64,000 nucleotides of DNA from Cyanodermella asteris (Eukaryota > Ascomycota > Lecanoromycetes > Ostropales > Stictidaceae). The position numbers and the translations under genes are program-made. The stretch lies in contig UYJD01000017.1 in assembly GCA_900618795.1 (NCBI GenBank), positions 374,314 to 438,313 of the forward strand. The letters are read 5' to 3'. Numbering within the stretch: position 1 is the first letter of the stretch; each line of letters opens with the position of its first letter. Below the pieces are notes generated by a model that saw only the letters and a list, made by a program, of their open reading frames with translations, was not told where the DNA came from and ran no database searches. Below are positions 12,112 through 55,844 of the stretch, piece by piece.

Positions 12112-12456
12112 TCATTTGCTGCACACGTGCGCCCAGAATGATGTCGACGTCCTCGTTTCACGGCCGCCCACACGGCCCGCAACGTACTCGTGGTACCATT
12201 GCTCCAAACGCTCGGTGAGAAGGCCCAACTTCTGGCAGGAGTTTATGCGCATGTCGGAACCTTCAGGCGCGGCGAGAGCCAACTGCCAGAATTGAAGCAT
12301 GGCCTTTTGGTTCGCAGTTCGTTCCAGTGGAGTTAAAAATGGTGCTGTGAGGATATGTTCCGGTCGGATGAATTTCTCAAAGCCCGCCGGTAGCGCCATG
12401 CCCTCTGCATAAGAAGTCATGGCTTGCGGGGACTGAGTTGCTTGTTGTTCGGTCAT
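12112..12456 (-). CDS. Small tandem-family protein, copy 1 (GM..P.GF/RPEH family)
   Basis: Single exon, 114 residues, ATG at 12456, stop 42 bp from the MAP1 stop (tail to tail). The protein carries the array's shared core: SYAEGMALPAGFEK, FIRPEHILTAPF, then LERxxxQ, a helical WQLALAAPEGS, LTERLEQWY and a terminal WAH. It has no signal peptide, membrane helix or cysteine framework, so it is probably cytosolic and alpha-helical. I do not recognise the family. Presence of the same motifs in the same order in the neighbouring ORFs is the main argument that it is a real gene. Confidence 0.7.
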   Translation of the reverse strand: MTEQQATQSPQAMTSYAEGMALPAGFEKFIRPEHILTAPFLTPLERTANQKAMLQFWQLALAAPEGSDMRINSCQKLGLLTERLEQWYHEYVAGRVGGRETRTSTSFWAHVCSK

Positions 12457-12957
12457 TTCACTTTACAGTGATGGGAGTCTAAAGACCGACCGTCCAGATT
12501 TGCCCTGAAATATAGCTGAAAGCTATTGACGTGTTCGCCAAACAGAGCGTCAATGAACCTCATACAGCTGGCACTCACGTTTCGCCTCAATGCTTGCTAC
12601 CTGAATCTCAATGTCTGAACGCGCGCTGCGTTTCCTCAATGCGCCCAACATGCTTGCTCGCTCCCCTACCCGATTCCCGTCCATTTGTCACGTATCTTCC
12701 TTTCGTTATCAAGATCTGTCCCGCTCGCAGCCATTTGTCACGTGTGTTCTCCAGCTCGTCATATCCCACACTCTACGATATGCTGGCATCTAGGAAGCAA
12801 CACAACCTGGCTTGACTAATACCGAGACTCCAGCGCTGATGTGATGGACCACGATTGCGCACGAGCTACGAACTTGCGTCTGGGGCCATTGTTTACCTCG
12901 GGAGCAACGTTCCAGTTACTCCGGACGCTCGAAGTAATCGCTCTTCGCTCCTGCTCA
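12457..12957. other. Upstream region of array copy 1
   Basis: 500 bp between copy 1 and the decayed copy. It holds the presumed promoter of copy 1. The last ~90 bases (from about 12870) may be the worn 3' part of the relic. Confidence 0.35.
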
Positions 12958-13062
12958 TTAGCTGGGCCCTTGCAGAAAAGGAGCTGTATCGACGTATTCT
13001 GGCCGAATTATGCCTGCCAAGAGAAATGGCCGTGGCATGCCGTAGAGATAAAATGGTGGCAT
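12958..13062 (-). pseudogene. Decayed copy of the small tandem family
   Basis: On the minus strand a 34-codon frame reads MPPFYLYGMPRPFLLAG and then IIRPEYVDTAPFLQGPS before a stop. It lines up with the family core (YxxGMPRPxGFxK, then IRPEHVxTAPFLQ), closest to copy 2. Everything C-terminal to TAPFLQ is lost to stops, and the spacing inside GF..K is altered. It sits between copies 1 and 2 on the same strand, so it is best read as a fifth array member that has died. Confidence 0.65.
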
Positions 13063-13285
13063 GGTGTATCGAGACCGTCATAATTATCCCTGACTGGCTG
13101 GGGGAGGGGATTCGATATGCTGAAATGATTCTGCAACCTGGGTCTATCATAGAGGAAGAAGCAGTAAAAGAAGAAAGATCAAAAGAACAGCATGAATTCA
13201 GCATCAAAGTACAAGTACATTCAGATAACCCGACAGTCACGTGTCCCGCCCCATGTTTGCTACGCTTCTTACTCAGTGCTCATCG

Positions 13286-13589
13286 CTACCAACACTCATT
13301 GACATGGTCCCACCACCGTGCCTCGTGCACCTGATGCTTGGACACCATGTACCCAAACTCCAGCCGTTTCGTGATCTCCGTCAACTGCTCCAGCGCTCGA
13401 GCACGCGTATAGGAGTCCTCGTCCGCGGCGAGGGCCATATTCCAGAGCCCCGTGATGCGTTCGCAATTTTCTTTTCTGGCTCGATCATTTTCTACGCATT
13501 GCAGGAAAGGGGCTGTTTCGACGTGCTCGGGTCGGATCATTCTTTTCAAAGCCGTCGGGCCGCGGCATGCCGTTTGTGTATGATGCCAT
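13286..13589 (-). pseudogene. Small tandem-family protein, copy 2, frame interrupted by one base
   Basis: The N-terminal frame starts at ATG 13589 (MASYTNGMPRPDGFEK). The rest of the family (MIRPEHVETAPFLQ through LTEITKRLEFGY to WWDHVNECW, stop 13286-13288) continues in the next frame. The two frames meet at GAAAAGAATGATC near 13548, where one extra base separates GFEK from MIRPEH. With that base ignored the product would be about 100 residues, like copies 1 and 4. The downstream part has no other stop and keeps all family motifs, so the break is recent, an assembly error, or (least likely) tolerated. Confidence 0.6.
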
Positions 13590-13770
13590 GGTGTTTTCGA
13601 GGTTGAGAGGTGCCCGAAATTGGGCTTGAGTGTTTGTAAACTGGTTTAGGAAATGTGTTTTCAATCCTGTTCCTAGGGACTGAGCTATTGATTTGAAGAG
13701 ATAAGGAAAGAACGAGGAGTAGGAGAACAATAAGGTGTCATTAAGAAAGCATTCATGCGATTTCACAGCC

Positions 13771-14175
13771 CTACCGTGACGTGTCCTCCAATGTTTGCTG
13801 CTCCCACGATGCTCGTTCGTCCATGTGCTCCCACGATGTCGTCTCGCCCATGCCTTCCTTGTAGGCCTTGTAGGCTTCGTAGTCGCGTTCCATCATTGCG
13901 GATATGATTCCGATCCCGACGATAATCGCAGCGATTTTGGGGTCCTGGCTCCTTCCAGCAATTCCTCTCAGAGCTCTATTCCAGCAGCTCGACATGATCC
14001 CAGAAAACTCTGCCTGTTGCTCTGCAGTGTAAAAGGGTGCCGTCGCGACGTGTTCCGGCCGGACGTACTTTGGGAAGCCGTCAGGAAGTGGCATGCCGAG
14101 GGTGTATGAAGGATAGGCGGGTCCGTGGACTGGGCTATGTTGGGATAGCTGTTCGTCCGGAATGTCGTTGTCCAT
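13771..14175 (-). CDS. Small tandem-family protein, copy 3
   Basis: Single exon, 134 residues from ATG 14175 (MDNDIPDEQ). The open frame runs on to 14280, but that extension would overlap copy 4 and has no family match, so I chose the inner ATG. The core is SYTLGMPLPDGFPK, YVRPEHVATAPF, SSCWNRALRG and a C-terminal TSWEHMDE. It differs from the others by a longer middle with a hydrophobic run (KIAAIIVGIGIISAMM), which may be a buried or membrane-associated helix. Same strand and spacing as its neighbours. Confidence 0.7.
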   Translation of the reverse strand: MDNDIPDEQLSQHSPVHGPAYPSYTLGMPLPDGFPKYVRPEHVATAPFYTAEQQAEFSGIMSSCWNRALRGIAGRSQDPKIAAIIVGIGIISAMMERDYEAYKAYKEGMGETTSWEHMDERASWEQQTLEDTSR

Positions 14176-14263
14176 CTTGCCTGCGGGCTGAATAAGTTGT
14201 CGGCGAAGGTGAAAGCCTCTATAGACTCTAACAGACCTACATATCCTTAGGTTGAGGTGACCT

Positions 14264-14575
14264 TCAACGTTTGCTGTCATTCAACGCCTTCTGCTCGTCA
14301 ATGTGCGCCCAGGTGGTTTTTGGATCCACGTCCTCTTTGCGTTTTCGGTACCTGTCCTCCAGCTCTTCAGTCATGTCGGCCAAATGTTTAAAGGCGTCAA
14401 TCTGCCACCGAGAACCCTGTGGCCCGGCGAGACCCCTTTTCCAGCACCGGCGGACCGAATTGTAATAATAGTCTTGGTCATCTTTGGACAAGAAAGGCGC
14501 TGTGTTGGCGTGTTCGGGGCGGATGTATTCTTCGAAGCCAGCCGGCCGCGCCATGCCCTCCACGTATTGAGACAT
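14264..14575 (-). CDS. Small tandem-family protein, copy 4
   Basis: Single exon, 103 residues, ATG at 14575. The core is QYVEGMARPAGFEE, YIRPEHANTAPF, RRCWKRGLAGPQGS, LADMTEELEDRYRKRKED, then TTWAHIDEQ. It is the first gene of the array in the direction of transcription, 88 bp upstream of copy 3's start. Highly charged, no signal peptide. Function unknown. Confidence 0.7.
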   Translation of the reverse strand: MSQYVEGMARPAGFEEYIRPEHANTAPFLSKDDQDYYYNSVRRCWKRGLAGPQGSRWQIDAFKHLADMTEELEDRYRKRKEDVDPKTTWAHIDEQKALNDSKR

Positions 14576-15822: not shown

Positions 15823-16596
15823 ATGAACAGAAGCAACGCCAACATGTCTCGCCTCCAAACAATCTACCTGCCCCATCGCCTGACGGCGCGCAACTTCCTA
15901 CAGTTCGAGGAGACGTACGCACGTCAGAGCATGTACGAACAAGTTTGGGAATTCGTGGATCCTGCGAGCTCCAGGGTACCCGCGATGCCCAACCGTCCCG
16001 AGGTACTGGATGAAAGGGGCGTACCAAAAGCGACATCGAGGATGACGGAACAGGACCTGCGCAACCTGGACCGATGGAACGCCAATTATCGACACAAGGT
16101 GGTGATTTGGAACGCTCAGCGAAGCAGATTAACAACCATCAAGGAGAGGATGCTGAAGGACCTTTCGATCGAGCAGCGACGTTGGGTCTATCAGCTCCCC
16201 ACTCCACGCCAGATTCTTGTTGAGCTCGGCCGCAGGCTTCGGCCAACGTACCAGAAGCAACGCGAGTACCTGGTCGATGATTACTTTGCGATTTGTGCCG
16301 GCTCGGGCACGCAAAATCCAAATGCGTGGCTCCAAGATTGGAAATCGATGCAACGCCTGTTCCTTACCTATGGTATGCACGATACAATCGAGCACCACAT
16401 GCCAACCGATTTCTTATTTGCTGCCATGCCTCTCCTTCCTGCCTGGACGCTCGCATACCATTCCGCCAAGCTGAGCCAGAGGCACAAACTGGATTTCGGA
16501 GAATGCATGAGGGACTTCGAAACGAATTGGCTGGCCAGCAGGAGGATGTCACAAGTGTCCTCGCCAGGCAGCTACCTGGCGACACAATTTCGGTGA
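15823..16596 (+). mobile_element. Ty1/copia-type Gag-like fragment (retrotransposon fossil)
   Basis: About 258 residues from the first ATG. The layout resembles fungal copia Gag: an N-terminal LTARNFLQFEETYARQ segment, WEFVDP followed by a proline-rich PNRPEVLDERG, a helical middle (LRNLDRWNANYRHK), LPTPRQILVELGRRLRPT, and WLQDWKSMQRLF. No protease, integrase or reverse transcriptase follows, and I see no LTR pair, so the element's true ends and age cannot be given. Base composition is like the surroundings, with no AT-rich decay of the sort left by RIP. It could be a lone remnant or a kept host gene derived from Gag. Confidence 0.6.
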
Positions 16597-39519: not shown

Positions 39520-40518
39520 CTAGACGTCCAGAAGCTTGCCCGTGGTGCCCTCACCTTTATCTGGACCGTTGTCCGCTCCATCATGATCGGAGCCATTTGC
39601 CGATGGATCGCCAGCCTGTTTGCCATCGCCGGGGGCGCTGTCATTGGCATCATTGTTGTGCTCGTTCGCCTTGGATGGCTCCGCTTTGGAGGCATCCGCA
39701 TCAGCGTCTTTCTGAGCATCATCCGCAGGAGCCACAACCTTGACGGCAGTCGGAGCCGTAGGTTTTGCCGTGGCCGGGCTTTCGTCAGGGTCGGCCGCCA
39801 AAGGGGCGGGCTCGTCCGGTTCCGTGGCAGCAGCAGGAGCAGCAGCGGTCGCCGGTGTAGCACTGGGTGCAGGTGCCGGAGTCGCAGCAGGCACGTTGCG
39901 ATTCCTCAAGGCTGCCGAGCTCATGCCGCCCTCGCCACTCCCGTACATATCCGGGTTGTTCAGCGTATGGTTCCGCACGGCCTTGTCGTACAGTCTCGTC
40001 AACCTCGCGACCTCACTCCTCACCGTGACCGAGTCTTCCGTGTCGATGTCGTCGTAACCATTGACGCCCTTTGATATGCCCAGCCACATGATCTCGCTGT
40101 TCTCAATCTCGTCCACGACGCGCTCGAGATCGTCCCGGAACATGCGCGCCCTCATTGGCTGGCCTCGAGACTTGAGGTACGCGACCAGGCCTGCGATGAT
40201 GGTGTTGGCGGCTCCGAGGAGCGTGATGTAGATGTGTTGGGCACCACCTGCGCCCATGCCCGTAACGGCGGCGCCGATGATGACCTGTGAGAGCAGTAGC
40301 AGATTTGCCACGCTAGCGGTCATTTGGTAGGAAAGGGACTGGCGAGATCGCTGGCGTATGGCGCGCTCGTAGAGGCTGCGTTCGGCGGGCCGCCATTTGC
40401 GGCCGGAGGGCAAGTCGGATGGAGGAACGCCAACGAGCTGACAGAATTGATCATGGATGTCGTCGGTACTGTAGTCGGCGCGGGGGAGTAGTGGCTGGCG
40501 TTCGAGGTCGGAAGACAT
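39520..40518 (-). CDS. Fungal SLATT-type two-transmembrane protein
   Basis: Single exon, 332 residues. The N-terminus has FCQLVGVPPSD, then KWRPAERSLYERAIRQRSRQS, the basic lead-in typical of the fungal SLATT domain. Two membrane helices follow at about 66-90 (VANLLLLSQVIIGAAVTGMG) and 95-115 (IYITLLGAANTIIAGLVAYL), joined by a short Gly-rich turn. A charged helix (RARMFRDDLERVVDEIENSEI) then faces the cytosol. The last ~130 residues are Ala/Pro/Asp-rich and disordered. In bacteria SLATT domains are predicted pore-forming effectors next to nucleotide-sensing domains. The fungal versions are uncharacterised to my knowledge, and no sensor domain or partner is evident beside this gene. Confidence 0.8.
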   Translation of the reverse strand: MSSDLERQPLLPRADYSTDDIHDQFCQLVGVPPSDLPSGRKWRPAERSLYERAIRQRSRQSLSYQMTASVANLLLLSQVIIGAAVTGMGAGGAQHIYITLLGAANTIIAGLVAYLKSRGQPMRARMFRDDLERVVDEIENSEIMWLGISKGVNGYDDIDTEDSVTVRSEVARLTRLYDKAVRNHTLNNPDMYGSGEGGMSSAALRNRNVPAATPAPAPSATPATAAAPAAATEPDEPAPLAADPDESPATAKPTAPTAVKVVAPADDAQKDADADASKAEPSKANEHNNDANDSAPGDGKQAGDPSANGSDHDGADNGPDKGEGTTGKLLDV

Positions 40519-41377
40519 GATTCACGTTTCAACGTATCATAAGAAGCGAATGATAGATGGGTAGTGTTCAAGGGATTTAGGCTGGATCCTGTGTCAGCCT
40601 CGTGGACGCACTTAAACACATTGCTCTTGTTCCTCATGGTGAACGGTAGTGATTTGACTCGATCTGCCTCGAAGGCACAGAACATAAATTTGAGCTCAAT
40701 CTCGAGTTTACACGAAGTCTGGTGCACATCATAACGGCAGGCACGTGAGCGTTGAGACAGGGAAGACGTCCAGGGCGGTTCCTGGGCCGGCTCGCTTGGA
40801 AAGTCAACAGTGCCAGCCGGGCAGATTCGCCGATCGAGCACAGAACAGCGGACGGACCGAAAGTAGGGGAAATTTGGTCTCACTTACGACAGCGATGGGA
40901 TAATGTGCACCACAACGGCACGACGCAACGCAGCACGGAGCAAAGAAGAGAAAGAAAGGTCGTCCTGCGATATCTGAGGCAGACAAGCACAGCCATCATC
41001 AGCAAGGTCACAAGCTGCCATTCGGCCAAATCTCCGGCCACGTGTGATCGCCCGCACACCGTCTCGAGGCGATCGAGCCACTCACTACCTACTGATGCAT
41101 GAAGTGGAAAAAGCTACAGAATTGCAGTACAGTAATCACGGGGATACACTATCAATCATAGCTCGGGCGGAAACGTGTTGGAGGTTGACCGTTTTGAGCC
41201 GTCGTGGCCAGCGCGTCGCTTAAGCAGAGACCGTTGGGAGCTTGTAGAATAAGCACGGCGCACCAACTCTACCGCAGCACCACCCAGCCAAGTGCGTTGG
41301 CTTGCTGGAAAGCCTCTCCTCTCCCTCTCCTTCTCCCTCTCCGCAGATCCGCCTTGATCGCCGCATCTGCCTGCCTC
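40519..41377. promoter_or_regulatory. Divergent promoter region, SLATT-like gene / SRP40-like gene
   Basis: 860 bp between diverging starts. A CT-rich run (cctctccctctccttctccctctcc, 41315-41340 region) lies 40-60 bp before the downstream ATG. No other feature. Confidence 0.45.
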
Positions 41378-47690: not shown

Positions 47691-50600
47691 TTACCAGAAG
47701 CTGCACCAACCAATGTAATGCTGGCAGATATTCTCCACGCTCGTCGCCTGTGCAATCAGCTTCTCAACCTGCTCCTCCACGTTCAATTCCTTGAACTCGC
47801 CCGGCCCGTCACGCCTCTCTAGATCGCGCTCCCTGTCTGTCATGAAGTCTCGTCCGTTCAACTTGTCTTTGACGCGTGCAAGCACCTGCACAGCTCTCGC
47901 GTTTTGCTGCTCGCGATTCTCGTTCGTCGTCTCCGTCGGCCGTTGCGGTTGGCCTCCGGTCGCGGTGCCGGCCCGCGGTCTGCGATACGAACTCTGTACG
48001 GCCGCCATGTTGGCCGATATTGAATTGATCTGCGCCGTTTCGAGGTCGCGCAGCGAAGCACCGGCCGTGGTGCCTTGGGCGCCCATGACGCTGACGTTGG
48101 GATCGGTGCCTTGGTCGGCGCCGATGAGGGATTGGCGGCGCTCCGATACGAAGTTGGTGCGATCGGGACTCTCGCGGGCCGTGAGACGCCAGTTCAGGAG
48201 CGGGTCGTGGATGAAGGCTTCGAGGACGGCCATCAGGGATTCCTTGTTTTCGCGAATGACTCGCATCACGTTGTAGCAGGATAGCTTGAAGCTGCCGTCA
48301 ATGTTGGACACCTCCATTGCGTAGGTGAGCATGCGCGTGAGTCGGAACGGTACGCGTTCGGGATACTTTTCACGCTGCGTGGCGATCTCGAAGCAGTCGC
48401 CAAAGTCGATGTGGATGATCTTACCGGTACCACGGTCGAGCATGAGATTGGACGGATGACGGTCACCAAGTCCGAGGATGTAGCCCACCATCGACATGAC
48501 AGCAAGCGATCGTGTGTAATTCGTGCGACGCTCAAGCCACGCCTCTGAGCTGCGAGACTTCAACCAGAGCACGCGATACAGATCCTTGCCTGTGGTGTTG
48601 TCCATGGCGTACTGGAAGACTTCGACTTTCTGCATCAAAGTCAGGGCATCGTAATCGGGAGCCATCTGAAGCATGATACGGTGTTCAATGTTCAGTAGGA
48701 TGCGCCTGTTATCTCGGTACTCCTTGATCAGGTTGTGAAGAGTATCACTGTTGTCAACAAAGCCGATAAGTCCCGAATTTTGCGAAAGTGGAATGATCGG
48801 GAAGGTCTGGATATGGAGATGGCGTTTGAAGCTCTCTGTGTCGTCATTCAGAAGTGTGTTGCAAAGACCGAACAATTGCATGACACGTTCATCCTGTCTG
48901 ATATCTTCGTGTCCCTTGAGAATATAAGAGTAAGGATTTCCGTCGCTACCACGAAGGGTCATCTTACGTGGACGCTGCTTGGATGGAATGACCGTGAACA
49001 CCTTGTCAAAGCTCTGAATCCGAATGATGGGCTTGCCAGATGCATAGGTACCGGGAACAGCCAGTACAAGGTTCTTCGCTTCACCGAGAGCAGGGGATAT
49101 GTACTTCAAGTCCAGTGTCATGAGTTGCTGAAGCTGCTTGGCAATGCGTCGGAAGACCCCATAGTAGAGATCCCAAGCCTGGTTGATGTCACCAGCGTCA
49201 CGAGTCTGCCTGAATCGCTCACACCATTGGCGAGCTTCGGTCAGCTCCCGACCGAAGGCATGAACAAAGGAAATCTCTCGTAAAGTTTCGGGGCCATCGT
49301 CAAGCAGCCTGTGAAGGGGAGCAAGGGTGTTGAACATGGCCTCTGGATTCCTATCCGGACCAAAGTATAGCCTGCTAGCTTCTTCGAGGCCCTCGTGCCA
49401 AAGCTCGTGCCACAAAACGGCCGAGCGGATAAGCTCCTTGCTCACCAGCTGTGCTTGATCGACCAGTTCACTGCTGTGAATGCGCAGCTGATCCATGACA
49501 GCCCTAGCCGAGTCTGAGCGACCTTTGACATCGGATTTCATGGCCACGGCGAGAGGATAGACCAGAACCTGGGGATGCACCTTTCCAACATCGCATAGTA
49601 GATCCTGCACGGCCTTCTTTGATCTTGGATTGGGTTGATTGATTCTCGCAATGAGTTGTGGCATGACCTCGAGCCATGTATCCATGTTCAGCAAGTGGAA
49701 GCCGTCCTTTAGAGCACTCAGGACATCGGCATCGCCTCCGTGGGCGAACCAGAGAGTCAGTAACCGCAGGGTATCCTGCAACGTGCTCTTAGAGTTCGAT
49801 AGAGAGATCGACTTGAAGAAACCTGCGATGGCTGGGATAACATGATTCGCAATGGCGTGTTGGTCATATGGTCTCGAATCTTGCGCCGGCTGTCCAGCAG
49901 CTGCACTGATGACCTCGAAATTGGCTAGTGCCCATGCATGCCACGCTTTGTAGCCGTCGGGATTGTATTGCGCAGCGGCCTTGTATGAGTCCAAAATCTC
50001 CTGTACCTGATGATCGTGATGCTTCCAATCGCCCTTGAGCTCTGATGTAACCCAGCGGCCATAGCGAAGATAAGCCTTGGAAAGCAAAAGACGCATTCGT
50101 GAGATACTTTCTCTTCGCTCTGCGATTTCCGCAGGCCAGCTCTGCGCGAACACATTCATAGGGTTGGGTGGATGCTGTTCGCTTTGCTGCAAAGAAAGCT
50201 GCAGGCTCTCACAGTGGTCGGAGAGTTTGGCTGTGAAGTCCCTCAGACCTGACAAAGTGTCCATACGATCATCGTCGCTGCTGCTGACCGTCCAGTCATA
50301 CTTCAGCTGCGAATACTGCACCTCTGGGATGACACCGGCTTGGTTGGAACTGTCGCTTCCTTGTCCTTCGGTGCCAACTGAAAGTCGCGATGGACTGTCA
50401 TAGATTGACTGCAATGACTTCGCAGCCAAACTTGTCCTATTCGACTTTCGACAGAGGTTCGCAAATTTGATCCACAAGTCCATATTTTCACGGGGAGTAA
50501 GGACAAGGGCACGGACCTTGAGCATTCTTTGCCAAGTCTCGACATTTTCTTCGCAGCCCATCAGACGGATCTTCCACGTTTCTCGCATGGTCGCCTGGCG

Positions 50601-53600
50601 GGCTGGGTCAAGTTCAGCCTTCTTGTACGCAATGATCTCCTCGAGCTCTGCGAGCATCTGAACACGTACAACCACACTATAGGCTCGCGTGTAAGATTCA
50701 CCGAGGAGGGCGCTGAGTTCGGTGTCAAGACCTTTCCTGGCTTTCTCGATATGGTCTTGAGCATCGGCAAACTGATTCTGCTGCAAAGCTCTGATGGCTC
50801 CATAGAACGGACGATCAGGAGAGTGCACTTTCATGGCCTCAATGTAGTTGTCCATGTGCTCCCATTGAGCCAGGCCCCAACTTGCAGCAGCAGCGAGAGG
50901 TGCCATTTGTCGCTTCTCGTCAATCGATGCTAGGCTCCACTTCTCCTGGGCAAGGTTGGCAAGTTCCTCCCACTCACCAACTGCGTGGTAGCACTTCATT
51001 TTGCCATAGTGAATGTCGAAGCTAATAGGATTGCCTGACTCAACCTCTCTCTGCTCTCGCTCCTGGTATCTTGTAAGCGCTTCGTCCCACTGACCCAGCT
51101 TCTCAAACCAAGACTCTTGGGTGTTGAACTCTGGGAAGCGCTTCGCGATACGTAGGATACCTACGGCCGCGTCAGCCTGCTGCAGATGGTTGTTTATGCT
51201 GATCAATGCTTCGATAACGTCAGGTGACTTGTCCTCCTCGAATTCAAGCTCCTTGTAGTGGAGCGCTTTGGCGTAGGCGTGACACCTAGTTGCGTACTTG
51301 CCAAGCGTGCCAATATCGATAGGTAGAGGTTTGTCATCGTGTTCCATGAACTCCGCTAGGTTGAGTAGAGTCTGGAGAATCTCGGGAGGGATCTGTTGCG
51401 ACGTGAGAGCTCGCTCAAGAGACATAACCAACTCATTCTGGTACTGCTCATATAGTTGCACGAAACAAGAAACGAATGCTGCGTTGAACAAGTCTTTAGC
51501 CAGGGGCGGATAGATGCTGGCAAGACTGGCGCAAGCTCGGAGTGCATTTGATGGCGACTCTTTCAATAATTCGATGCTGAAGCGTCGCATCCATTCGAGC
51601 CAATCCTCGCGTGTCACCTTCTGTGATGAATCCCAAGCCGTTTTGAGATGCTCCTGGTTGACTTGCAGCTGCCTTTGGCCAACGTCAGTGAAGCTCAAGT
51701 CGTCCCCAATGGTCTTCAGTTGTGGTGCTGGGCGGAGATCTTGCTGCAGTGACTGGCCACTTCGGATCTTGTTATGTAACTGATCGAACAATGCCGTGCT
51801 GATAGTAAGCTTGCTCGCCTTCAGGGCCATGCTTACACCGTCCAGAAACGGTTCGACATCTAGCGGGAACTGGAACATCAGAGTGACAATGGATTCGTAT
51901 GCAGCGTTTTGGATTTGAGGATCTTTTGAGGAAAGCATATCGCCGAGGTTGTGCATCAAGAGAGCCGAGTAATCAGAGATGTTAGTCTGGCGGGCAATGC
52001 TTCCTGCCGTCTCGATGCAGTTTCGACGCACGTGGGCAGGCCTCTGCAGACTGGTAAATGTTCGCACGAGCTTGGGAAGGATGAACCACATGGCCTGTTC
52101 TGCATCCTGACCGAAGACCAATATTGTGTGCAAAACTTTGTTGCAGTTGTCGTTGATACCGGGCGAGTCTTTGGAGCTATCAAAGAGACCAAGCATCAGT
52201 GGAAGCAAGTCCACAATCGACGGGTAGAATTCGCGATGGAGGGCTCGAGACAGAGCCTCAGTCAGCAGCAGAGTTGCAGCCTGGACCGCGGGTGTTATGT
52301 TCCAACAATCTTTGATCAGCTTGACGAGGTCGTTTCTGAAAGGTCGAATATGTTCTCGTACGATCGAAACAAGGATGGCCAACTGATTGAAATAAGCATC
52401 CTGGCGATTCGGAGGTGCACTATGGATGACCGTGATGAAGATCGGGATGATCTGAGGCAAGAAGGATACACATTTTAGGCCTAGTGTCTTGAAGATAGCC
52501 ACGATGGCATCAATGACCGCATTGTGGTACTGTGACAGCGAACTGTCCTTCAACACATTGTACAGTAGCGTATGCATGACTACTGTGGGAAAGTACTCCT
52601 CGTTCGAAGGTGTGAGGCCCTGCATCATCAAGTCCACGTCACTGACCGGAGTGGTGTCGTTCGACTTCGAGCTGGTGATCTGTTCCATGGCCTGCTGGTG
52701 TCTGTACGGATCCAGAGCACCCAGGACACCTAGAAGGCGGATTGTATGAGTCCGCACATTGCCCTGTGATTCAGTCTTGATGATGTTTGTAAGCAGAGGC
52801 AGAAGCTCCGGGTAGTCAAGGTATGGCTCGATCACATATCCAGAGTTACTCGCCAACTGTCCGAGTGTGATCAAGGCAGAGTCTCTCTTGTTTGGGGCGC
52901 TGAGATCTTGTAACGCCTCAATGATGATGGGCATCAGTTGCGGCACGAACTTCTTCATGTCACTTCCGCCCAGAGTCGCAAGATCTCCAACGGCAGAAAT
53001 AACTGCTGAAGCTACAGCCGGATTGGTATCAGTCGCTTTTGGTAAAAATGTCTTGACAAGAGTCTCGACAAACGGCTTGACCAGTTCGGAGGTATGCTTA
53101 ACGAAAAGACTAATAAGCTGAGCACCCTCTTCTTCGTATATCGGGTCTTTGGATGCATGTATACTCATGGTGAAGTTTTGTAGGAGCTTGCGTAGGGGAG
53201 GGAAGACGTAGGCAGGGTTGACACCGACAAGTCGGCCAAGGATGATCATTGCCGCTTTTCGAACCTCGTACTCGGATTCATTGACTGCCATGATGATCTT
53301 GCGGATGTTGTCTTGCTCGGCCAAATATCGATCGAATTTGTCGTCCAGGGCCAGCAATATCGTTCGTCGAATGTCGGGGATCGGATCGCCGATAGCAGCA
53401 CTCAATAACTCCGAGATGACGAGTCGTACTACCGCGATTGCATGCAAGCTAGTTTGTTTGATGATGGGATCATGTTCGTAGATGTTGCAGCATGTCAAAG
53501 CAGCAGCCTTCCTGATCTCGGGCCGTGGATTCTTGACGAATCTCAAAGCAACATCGCGGACGAACTCATTGAGAACATGTCCTTTGAAGTCAAAGCTGCC

Positions 53601-55040
53601 AAGTGTATTCAAGGCATGAGCAACTTCTGCGTCTCCATGGACGATGCCCTGCTGCGGCCAATCGCGAGCAAATACTGGGATCGGAGGAAGCCTGTTATCG
53701 GGGCATCCGAGCGGCTTGAATGGTCGCCCGCACAAGACAAGACTGATGAGGTTCAGGAGTTTCTCCTGCACTGCTGATTTGACGGGCTGAACGTAGTGGG
53801 CCATGTCTGAGAGCGCCTGCGTTAGAGCTGGACTCAGCCCGCAGGCGAACATTGGGTCGAGAAGTGCATCCATGTACTTGGTCAGTACCTGGCCAACCGC
53901 AACACAAAGCTTGCTGATACATGTAAATACAGCACCATCCTTGTCATCCTTGCTTCTTGTTCTCACTCGATAGCCAAGTCCCTCACGAATTGCTAGCAGA
54001 ATCGCATCGAGGTATGGCTGAATACCACCTTTGATGGCTAGTGCAACCTCGCCAATCGCGATAAAGGCCGGATTGCGCTCCTTGTCCTTTTTGAGCTGCT
54101 CGCGAAGGAAGTGCATGAACTTCGGACTCCAATTCGAGCTGAATACTGCTGGTGCGTATGACGCTAATAAAGGAATCATTCCAACAATTTCAGACCGAAT
54201 CCTGATCTCCTTGTGCTTCATGTGCATGATGGCAATCTCGCATGCTCTCTGGAAGTGGTCGTTCATAAACATGCCTCCAGCTCTTACTAATTCTCGAATG
54301 ACGAGGAGACCTCCATGCACATTCTCAGTCGAGCTCTGGTGAATCTTGTCGCATGCCTTGTTCCAGACGGTCTGGAACCACTGCGTTCGAGTCTTCGCAT
54401 CACGAGCTGCAAGTATGGATAAGCACTCGCGGACGGCTTCAGCCGCAGTCTCACGAATCAAGACTTTGACATCGCAGAGAGCGGGCCAGATGAATTCAAG
54501 AATGTTGGGCACATATTGAAAGAGAAGGGTGGGGCTGTTCTTTGCCAACTCCTTAAGGAGGAGCACAGCTGCGAATCGTCTGGTTTCGTATCGCTCTGAC
54601 GACTCGAGCCACTCCAACGCCATCTTGACTTCACTGTCCACCAACTCCGCCGTGAAAGCCCCGCCAGGCTGGGCGAGCTTGCCCATAGCATGCGCCGCGT
54701 AGACCAGTACATCGGTATCATTGCTGCGCAAAGCCGACTGGAGATTGTTCAGGTATCTTGTCGTCTTCTGTGCGTCGTCTACTCCGTGGAAATCGATCAG
54801 CTGGTCAATTGCTATTATACCCCCCATCTTCTCCTGTGGATCCGCAGCAGCGACGGCAAGTGACGTGATCCGGTTGTTCACTCCTGAGAAGTATTCCGAA
54901 AATTTGTCCGGCTGCAGCTCACGATACGCGTACGAAACCTGGTTGAAGAGCTCCTGACCGGCACGTTGTCGAACTTCCTTGTCGGGCGTCCTAAGCTGTT
55001 GGAAGACATTGTTCAGAGCGGCTTGGCTGAGGATCGACAT
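47691..55040 (-). CDS. TOR1: TOR serine/threonine kinase (PIKK)
   Basis: Single uninterrupted exon of 7,350 bases, 2,449 residues, full family length. It is the catalytic core of TORC1/TORC2, controlling growth in response to nutrients. N-terminal HEAT repeats occupy about 1-1240, the FAT domain about 1250-1800. The FRB domain (about 1875-1975) has LWHELWHEGLEEASRLYFG, keeping the serine whose mutation gives rapamycin resistance in yeast and human, so the protein should be sensitive to FKBP12-rapamycin. The kinase domain (about 2020-2330) has YILKGHEDIRQDERVMQLF, GLGDRHPSNLML (catalytic Asp) and IHIDFGDCFE. The FATC end is VENICQHYIGWCSFW. Numerous antisense ORFs inside it are shadows. Confidence 0.98.
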   Translation of the reverse strand: MSILSQAALNNVFQQLRTPDKEVRQRAGQELFNQVSYAYRELQPDKFSEYFSGVNNRITSLAVAAADPQEKMGGIIAIDQLIDFHGVDDAQKTTRYLNNLQSALRSNDTDVLVYAAHAMGKLAQPGGAFTAELVDSEVKMALEWLESSERYETRRFAAVLLLKELAKNSPTLLFQYVPNILEFIWPALCDVKVLIRETAAEAVRECLSILAARDAKTRTQWFQTVWNKACDKIHQSSTENVHGGLLVIRELVRAGGMFMNDHFQRACEIAIMHMKHKEIRIRSEIVGMIPLLASYAPAVFSSNWSPKFMHFLREQLKKDKERNPAFIAIGEVALAIKGGIQPYLDAILLAIREGLGYRVRTRSKDDKDGAVFTCISKLCVAVGQVLTKYMDALLDPMFACGLSPALTQALSDMAHYVQPVKSAVQEKLLNLISLVLCGRPFKPLGCPDNRLPPIPVFARDWPQQGIVHGDAEVAHALNTLGSFDFKGHVLNEFVRDVALRFVKNPRPEIRKAAALTCCNIYEHDPIIKQTSLHAIAVVRLVISELLSAAIGDPIPDIRRTILLALDDKFDRYLAEQDNIRKIIMAVNESEYEVRKAAMIILGRLVGVNPAYVFPPLRKLLQNFTMSIHASKDPIYEEEGAQLISLFVKHTSELVKPFVETLVKTFLPKATDTNPAVASAVISAVGDLATLGGSDMKKFVPQLMPIIIEALQDLSAPNKRDSALITLGQLASNSGYVIEPYLDYPELLPLLTNIIKTESQGNVRTHTIRLLGVLGALDPYRHQQAMEQITSSKSNDTTPVSDVDLMMQGLTPSNEEYFPTVVMHTLLYNVLKDSSLSQYHNAVIDAIVAIFKTLGLKCVSFLPQIIPIFITVIHSAPPNRQDAYFNQLAILVSIVREHIRPFRNDLVKLIKDCWNITPAVQAATLLLTEALSRALHREFYPSIVDLLPLMLGLFDSSKDSPGINDNCNKVLHTILVFGQDAEQAMWFILPKLVRTFTSLQRPAHVRRNCIETAGSIARQTNISDYSALLMHNLGDMLSSKDPQIQNAAYESIVTLMFQFPLDVEPFLDGVSMALKASKLTISTALFDQLHNKIRSGQSLQQDLRPAPQLKTIGDDLSFTDVGQRQLQVNQEHLKTAWDSSQKVTREDWLEWMRRFSIELLKESPSNALRACASLASIYPPLAKDLFNAAFVSCFVQLYEQYQNELVMSLERALTSQQIPPEILQTLLNLAEFMEHDDKPLPIDIGTLGKYATRCHAYAKALHYKELEFEEDKSPDVIEALISINNHLQQADAAVGILRIAKRFPEFNTQESWFEKLGQWDEALTRYQEREQREVESGNPISFDIHYGKMKCYHAVGEWEELANLAQEKWSLASIDEKRQMAPLAAAASWGLAQWEHMDNYIEAMKVHSPDRPFYGAIRALQQNQFADAQDHIEKARKGLDTELSALLGESYTRAYSVVVRVQMLAELEEIIAYKKAELDPARQATMRETWKIRLMGCEENVETWQRMLKVRALVLTPRENMDLWIKFANLCRKSNRTSLAAKSLQSIYDSPSRLSVGTEGQGSDSSNQAGVIPEVQYSQLKYDWTVSSSDDDRMDTLSGLRDFTAKLSDHCESLQLSLQQSEQHPPNPMNVFAQSWPAEIAERRESISRMRLLLSKAYLRYGRWVTSELKGDWKHHDHQVQEILDSYKAAAQYNPDGYKAWHAWALANFEVISAAAGQPAQDSRPYDQHAIANHVIPAIAGFFKSISLSNSKSTLQDTLRLLTLWFAHGGDADVLSALKDGFHLLNMDTWLEVMPQLIARINQPNPRSKKAVQDLLCDVGKVHPQVLVYPLAVAMKSDVKGRSDSARAVMDQLRIHSSELVDQAQLVSKELIRSAVLWHELWHEGLEEASRLYFGPDRNPEAMFNTLAPLHRLLDDGPETLREISFVHAFGRELTEARQWCERFRQTRDAGDINQAWDLYYGVFRRIAKQLQQLMTLDLKYISPALGEAKNLVLAVPGTYASGKPIIRIQSFDKVFTVIPSKQRPRKMTLRGSDGNPYSYILKGHEDIRQDERVMQLFGLCNTLLNDDTESFKRHLHIQTFPIIPLSQNSGLIGFVDNSDTLHNLIKEYRDNRRILLNIEHRIMLQMAPDYDALTLMQKVEVFQYAMDNTTGKDLYRVLWLKSRSSEAWLERRTNYTRSLAVMSMVGYILGLGDRHPSNLMLDRGTGKIIHIDFGDCFEIATQREKYPERVPFRLTRMLTYAMEVSNIDGSFKLSCYNVMRVIRENKESLMAVLEAFIHDPLLNWRLTARESPDRTNFVSERRQSLIGADQGTDPNVSVMGAQGTTAGASLRDLETAQINSISANMAAVQSSYRRPRAGTATGGQPQRPTETTNENREQQNARAVQVLARVKDKLNGRDFMTDRERDLERRDGPGEFKELNVEEQVEKLIAQATSVENICQHYIGWCSFW

Positions 55041-55844
55041 GTTGTCGGATCTTGTTGGCCCAGCCTTTAGGCAGTCATTGTTTCTCTACGTGTATGTTGC
55101 TCCGTCTCTTTCTTGGGCCCGTCGGCCGAGCGAGCGGCGCAGATTGGAATCAGTAGGGCGGGAAAATAGTGCAGAGGAGGGTTTGAGGCGGGCTGTTGAC
55201 AGAAGGCAGAAGCGCGGCGCCGAACAAAAGGTGCACGCGCTCTGCTCGTGAATACTTCCGGGCTACCTTGTCATCTGTGGTTGTGTTGGGTGAGGGTCCT
55301 GTAAGGCGATGAGTGACGCGCCCGAAGCTTCGGCGGAGGAAGTTGAAGTTGAGGCGCATGGAGCTTCGATGGAGAAGCCAGTGGGGGCGACCCGGCTAAG
55401 AGCTTCAGCTGGGACACACTAAGCCGGTACGGGTGGTCACAAGATGTGCATGCCGTGATTAGCCACAACCTTCGACATCTATCCATGACTGGTGATTTCT
55501 ACCTCTATAAATCACTGCACCAGATCCATGTTGAATGTCTCGACGAAAACTGCTGCGCTCATGTGCTCGGTAAGCTGAACGAACAGCACTATGTTTCTAG
55601 CCATCGCTACATCGGTAAGCAATTTCAGACGAAGACCGAGCAGTAGCTGAGAGCAATATTTGACAGGCACCAAGTTACCCATGACCACAGTGATCCTGTC
55701 CGTCTGCCTTTGCGGGTCAACATCCCGCTTACTGGATATCATCTGAACATTAGCCGTGCTTGATCACTACTCACCTTCCAGCAAGGTTATTAACGACGAC
55801 TTATACTAACGCCGCCTGAGCGGCGAAACGACTCACGACTCACG
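55041..55844. promoter_or_regulatory. Divergent promoter region, TOR / OMA1
   Basis: 800 bp between diverging start codons. A direct repeat ACGACTCACGACTCACG ends at the OMA1 ATG (55829-55844). No gene recognised. Confidence 0.45.

What the first reader, a model, noticed from the sequence alone, without database searches (positions are those of the whole stretch)
12112..14575. Tandem array of an unrecognised small-protein family
Five same-strand units in 2.5 kb share the order Y-x2-GM-x2-P-x-GF-x-K, then (F/Y/I)(I/V)RPE(H/Y)-x2-TAPF, then a Trp/Leu-rich helix and a terminal W(A/D/E)H. Three are open (copies 1, 3, 4), one has a single-base frame break and one is a relic. The core is nearly invariant while the tails diverge strongly, the pattern of a protein family under selection on a short motif. 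It has no signal peptide and no known domain that I recognise. Birth and death within one cluster suggests rapid, lineage-specific evolution.
Basis: seen in the sequence. Interest (0 to 1): 0.75.

Follow-up and report, generated by a model that had tools for sequence, protein, structure and literature searches.

The report
Tandem small helical-protein genes, fungal
A fungal chromosome carries a row of five related small-protein genes, three intact and two broken, whose predicted helical protein weakly resembles a stretch of a core transcription-factor subunit; it is a real but modest find whose job in the cell is untested.

Summary
Five head-to-tail units lie on the minus strand at 14575-12112: three open genes (103, 134 and 114 aa), one unit with a frame break (13589-13286) and one relic (about 13073-12717). 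The copies are homologous (tblastn E down to 2e-19). RPE(H/Y)xxTAPF occurs 5 times in the window and 0 times in 30 shuffled windows. Core dN/dS is 0.09-0.27 among the three open copies, with third-position excess, so these are, or long were, coding genes. The relic is sister to the frame-broken unit.

(2) A four-copy profile finds TFIID subunit 12 (TAF12, PDB 9ynu) residues 35-114 at E=0.0032, beating shuffled controls. This is a suggestive distant relationship carried mainly by the helices; the core profile alone is not significant. No Pfam or NCBIfam family reached its cut-off. No fungal genome collection could be searched, so spread and age are unknown. Most likely: small intracellular helical adaptor proteins evolving by duplication and loss.

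The parts
14264..14575 (-). c5, intact small-protein gene, 103 aa
   Evidence: ORF; homologous to other copies; AF2 mean pLDDT 88.5, helices 20-24, 31-50, 56-82, 90-102
13771..14175 (-). c4, intact small-protein gene, 134 aa from the ATG at 14175; the frame is also open upstream to an ATG at 14280, which overlaps the 3' end of c5
   Evidence: AF2 best-model pLDDT 83.0 (other four models 55.4-68.1), same helix order as c5
13286..13589 (-). c3, unit with a frame break between 13542 and 13540; the downstream 84-aa ORF (13286-13540) starts with an ATG right after the break and keeps RPEHxxTAPF, the helical part and WxH
12717..13073 (-). c2, relic unit, sister of c3; a 34-codon stub at 13062-12958 still reads RPEYxxTAPF, then stops
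   Evidence: 225 of 346 ungapped positions identical to c3 over the unit, 25 gap columns; tblastn; stub
12112..12456 (-). c1, intact small-protein gene, 114 aa
   Evidence: ORF; tblastn to c5 E=2e-19

Best explanation
A tandem array of small intracellular protein genes in a fungus. Each intact gene makes a 103-134 aa protein: an extended proline/glycine-rich lead-in (YxxGMxxPxGF), a short helix at RPEH followed by TAPF, two long helices and a last helix starting at WxH. The most likely action is that of a helical adaptor or competitor: the invariant RPEHxxTAPF segment and the helices form a docking surface for a partner protein, while the variable tails tune partner or stability. The array grows and shrinks by unequal duplication, as the decayed pair c2/c3 suggests. 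The helical part is probably a distant relative of an N-terminal helical segment of a long TAF12 (a subunit shared by TFIID and SAGA), so the partner may be part of the transcription machinery. Shown: genes, homology, core constraint, relic. Predicted: fold. Suggestive only: relationship to TAF12. Inferred: adaptor or competitor action and any partner.
For: Homology among copies; motif 5 versus 0 in 30 shuffles; core dN/dS 0.09-0.27 among c1, c4 and c5, with third codon positions changing most; two AF2 models with the same helix order; low N-terminal hydropathy in the four proteins tested; TAF12 35-114 is the top of 3 hits at E<=10 among 177,635 PDB sequences, E=0.0032, the next being 0.3, with a single one-residue gap in the printed alignment; 26.8 bits against at most 12.8 for 20,000 shuffled segments and at most 7.5 for the 148 of 150 column-shuffled profiles that gave a score, and 18.7-27.1 bits in 4 leave-one-out profiles; helix half alone: 0 of 10,000 shuffles of the aligned part and 1 of 10,000 of the whole segment reach it.
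Against: E=0.0032 is marginal and rests on one target whose organism the tools did not show. The core half of the profile alone is matched by 326 of 10,000 shuffles of the aligned part and 1,353 of 10,000 of the whole segment; single core pieces by Smith-Waterman are mixed (16, 113, 10 and 1 of 2,000 shuffles as good for c5, c1, c4, c3). c3 as a whole does not align to TAF12 in register (18 of 2,000), and c5 alone did not find TAF12 at E<=10. Foldseek gave no credible PDB match for either model (best E 1.7 and 6.3), so a fold shared with TAF12 is not shown. No transcripts and no relatives in other genomes were seen.
Confidence: 0.5

Rival explanations
1. An ordinary, perhaps lineage-restricted fungal small-protein family with a helical fold of its own; the TAF12 similarity is chance between helical segments that share an RPE turn and a tryptophan.
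For: Marginal E-value, no significant support from the core half of the profile, no fold match, no Pfam or NCBIfam family above cut-off.
Against: TAF12 leads the next PDB sequence about 90-fold in E-value and beats composition and column-order controls.
Confidence: 0.38
2. Effector-like proteins of a host-associated fungus, exported without a classical signal peptide.
For: Tandem, diverging small genes with relics are typical of effector clusters (recalled, general knowledge; no call).
Against: No hydrophobic N-terminal stretch and few cysteines (1-3 per protein); a strongly conserved core is not the usual effector pattern (recalled); the organism is unknown.
Confidence: 0.08
3. The array is decaying as a whole, the three open frames included (no function left).
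For: Two of five units are broken; c1 lacks the longer C-terminus of c4 and c5; tail dN/dS is 0.59-0.93 in three of the four pairs other than c5/c4 (0.23) where it could be computed or was not saturated.
Against: Three full-length open frames, core dN/dS 0.09-0.27 among them, confident models.
Confidence: 0.04

Closest known systems
TFIID/SAGA subunit TAF12, N-terminal part (PDB 9ynu chain I, residues 35-114 of 770)
   Same: Order and near-identical spacing: RPE, P and a tryptophan are invariant in the five-row alignment, with GS..I.A shared by c5; predicted helices of c5 (31-50, 56-82) fall in the aligned stretch
   Different: 24% identity to c5; these are free-standing 103-134 aa proteins; TAPF is IPLL in TAF12, and the final WxH lies beyond the aligned segment; a fold match is not shown
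Tandem, turnover-prone small-gene families of filamentous fungi (general kind, recalled)
   Same: Head-to-tail paralogues with relics
   Different: No sign of secretion; core under strong constraint

Membership tests
TAF12 (TFIID/SAGA subunit 12) | C-terminal histone-fold domain (defining feature recalled) | tested here: not met
   No TFIID or histone-fold Pfam family among the matches at E<=10 for c1, c3, c4 or c5 (HMMER's filters drop most weak matches); the profile aligns only to TAF12 residues 35-114. So they are not TAF12.
TAF12 N-terminal helical segment | Sequence similarity over the segment | tested here: inconclusive
   Profile E=0.0032, whole-profile controls passed; core half alone not significant. 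No Pfam model matched the segment above cut-off
TAF12 N-terminal helical segment | Same three-dimensional fold | tested here: inconclusive
   No TAF12 chain among the 50 listed of 54 Foldseek matches for c5 nor among 5 for c4; whether residues 35-114 are resolved in 9ynu, or whether 9ynu is in that library, is unknown here
Secreted protein with signal peptide | Hydrophobic N-terminal signal | tested here: not met
   Maximum 11-residue Kyte-Doolittle mean near the N-terminus is 0.07 to 1.26 in four proteins; a rough proxy, no signal-peptide predictor was run

The most novel reading that the evidence does not exclude
A fungus has set free a helical docking segment of TAF12 as a tandem family of mini-proteins that compete with or modulate assembly of TFIID or SAGA: a natural 'microprotein' control of the general transcription machinery, with a dose that changes by gene duplication and loss.
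Probability: 0.12. Interest if true: 0.8.

Novelty: new member of a known kind. Interest (0 to 1): 0.4.

Why it matters
If only a small-protein family, it adds a fungal tandem cluster, absent from Pfam and NCBIfam, with a confident predicted fold and a clear core motif to search with. If the TAF12 link is right, it would point to free-standing mini-copies of a coactivator segment, testable directly by pull-down, and an unusual way to tune TFIID or SAGA.

Tried and rejected
No relatives found: plasmid and phage collections gave no match by tblastn with c5; three scans of IMG/VR (34, 1 and 31 pattern matches) and one of GTDB genomes (14 pattern matches) confirmed none by tblastn. These are not fungal collections, so the absence says little about fungi.

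Pfam matches of the copies (TetR_C_6, IATP, DUF6607) were below their cut-offs and differ from copy to copy: rejected; the TAF12 segment's own best match (CTD7) likewise. NCBIfam: two weak matches, E 0.068 and 0.14, one member each: rejected. PADLOC and PHROGs were not searched. Structural neighbours: 54 PDB matches at E<=10 for the c5 model (best 1.7), 88 in BFVD (best 1.8; 50 listed in each case), 5 in PDB for the c4 model (best 6.3): rejected. Endonuclease VIII shares a short RPE..TxPFL stretch with the five-row profile (domain E=25): taken as chance. Repeat-induced mutation: TA/AT 0.54 and 0.66 in the two bins of the array, within the window's 0.37-0.81: no sign. Shared promoters: 10 pairs of 5' flanks gave no alignment beyond shuffles except a weak hint for c1/c2 (16 of 300; the rest 56 or more of 300).

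The U5/U4 row (score 176) was an artefact of overlapping segments; redone without overlap it scored 47 against a null maximum of 34.5. U2 against U1 scored below its null maximum (24 against 34).

My early reading of ORF 47694-55085 as TRA1 was wrong: it is TOR kinase (the correction is in the notebook). The half-profile test gave no value for the core half; after a script error it was redone, which is less favourable to my reading.

Literature: eight searches, seen as listings with starts of abstracts; one of them aimed at the small-protein family, the rest at TAF12. I saw nothing there on this family or on such a TAF12 segment. Passages on TAF12 were read in PMC8660637 and PMC8080568; no whole paper was read.

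Full report
What is there. The window is from a fungus, probably a filamentous ascomycete (inference from gene content: TOR kinase 47694-55085; AICARFT/IMPCHase, SUN-family and SLATT_fungal genes). Next to a Peptidase_M24 gene (methionine-aminopeptidase-like, recalled) lie five head-to-tail units, all on the minus strand. Three are open: c5 14264-14575 (103 aa), c4 13771-14175 (134 aa), c1 12112-12456 (114 aa). One (c3) is split by a frame break between 13542 and 13540, and an 84-aa frame continues to 13286. One (c2) is a relic with a 34-codon stub.

Is it more than chance? Yes. The copies find each other by tblastn at E down to 2e-19. RPE[HY]..TAPF occurs 5 times in six frames and never in 30 shuffled windows. 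The relic aligns to c3 over the unit, 225 of 346 ungapped positions identical with 25 gap columns; its score, 114.5, is the highest of the ten unit pairs (with the c5/c4 pair redone without overlap). Of 10 pairs of C-terminal DNA stretches, c5/c4 and c4/c3 align better than all 500 shuffles; the other 8 do not stand out (28 or more of 500).

Is it coding? Over the 26-codon core, differences at codon positions 1, 2, 3 are 3, 5, 13 (c5/c1), 7, 8, 15 (c5/c4) and 7, 6, 16 (c1/c4); core dN/dS 0.09, 0.27, 0.17. For c3 only 12 core codons can be compared: 0.19 with c5, saturated with c1 and c4. Tails: 0.59 (c5/c1), 0.23 (c5/c4), 0.93 (c1/c4), 0.82 (c5/c3), saturated for c1/c3 and c4/c3. dS runs from 0.64 to 3.3 and is beyond correction in 4 of 12 comparisons, so the ratios are rough and the duplications not young. 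The Nei-Gojobori counts were written out in the script.

What does it look like? AlphaFold2 on a four-row alignment gives c5 a mean pLDDT of 88.5 and pTM 0.77 (five models 78.4-88.5), helices 20-24, 31-50, 56-82, 90-102. c4, with the same four sequences, reaches 83.0 in its best model (the other four 55.4-68.1) with the same order, helices 40-44, 51-73, 79-108, 116-133, and a low-confidence first 17 residues. The short first helix starts at the PEH of RPEH; the last starts right after the W of WxH. No hydrophobic N-terminus by a simple hydropathy check. Foldseek gave nothing credible.

What is it related to? No Pfam or NCBIfam family above cut-off. The four-copy profile against 177,635 PDB sequences returned 3 hits at E<=10, the best being TFIID subunit 12 of entry 9ynu, residues 35-114, E=0.0032; next were SAC3 (0.3) and bL9m (0.66). 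Controls: 26.8 bits for the TAF12 segment against a best of 12.8 in 20,000 shuffled segments and 7.5 in the 148 of 150 column-shuffled profiles that gave a score; reversed segment 0.4 bits; leave-one-out 18.7 (without c5), 23.8, 27.1 and 26.3 bits. Single copies by Smith-Waterman: c1, c4 and c5 0 of 2,000 shuffles each, c3 18 of 2,000 and out of register; c5 alone did not list TAF12 at E<=10 in the database search. Split in halves, the helix part holds (0 of 10,000 for the aligned part, 1 of 10,000 for the whole segment), the core profile does not (326 and 1,353 of 10,000), and single core pieces are mixed (16, 113, 10, 1 of 2,000 for c5, c1, c4, c3). The TAF12 segment itself matched only 9ynu's sequence and one unrelated weak hit at E<=1, so it is not detectably shared by other TAF12 sequences that the PDB may hold. 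The tools did not show the organism of 9ynu, and no paper in the library names the entry; that it is fungal is my assumption.

How might it work? In yeast SAGA the long N-terminus of Taf12 wraps around the FAT domain of Tra1 (passages of PMC8660637). If the helical part of these small proteins is a free-standing relative of a TAF12 N-terminal segment, they could dock on or compete for a coactivator surface. That is inference on a marginal homology, and the yeast and 9ynu N-termini are not shown to be related. The safer statement is a small intracellular helical adaptor with a constrained RPEHxxTAPF docking segment.

Verdict. Real, protein-coding, not in the two family libraries searched, with an informative predicted fold and one intriguing distant lead. 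Spread across fungi could not be tested.

Noticed in passing
15823-16596 +: 257-aa ORF next to the array that looks like the gag part of a fungal Copia-type retroelement (recalled resemblance); no Pfam match at E<=0.01 and no PDB match at E<=1. Of the further ORFs up to 20.3 kb only two were scanned with Pfam, without a match.
   Followed up: partly
13286-13540 -: In c3 the ATG of the surviving 84-aa frame lies directly at the frame break, so the helical part could still be translated without the lead-in motif.
   Followed up: no
47694-55085 -: TOR kinase gene in one long open frame of 2464 codons.
   Followed up: yes
39523-40521 -: SLATT_fungal protein (E=2.1e-33), a fungal relative of a two-transmembrane domain named after SMODS and SLOG association.
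   Followed up: no
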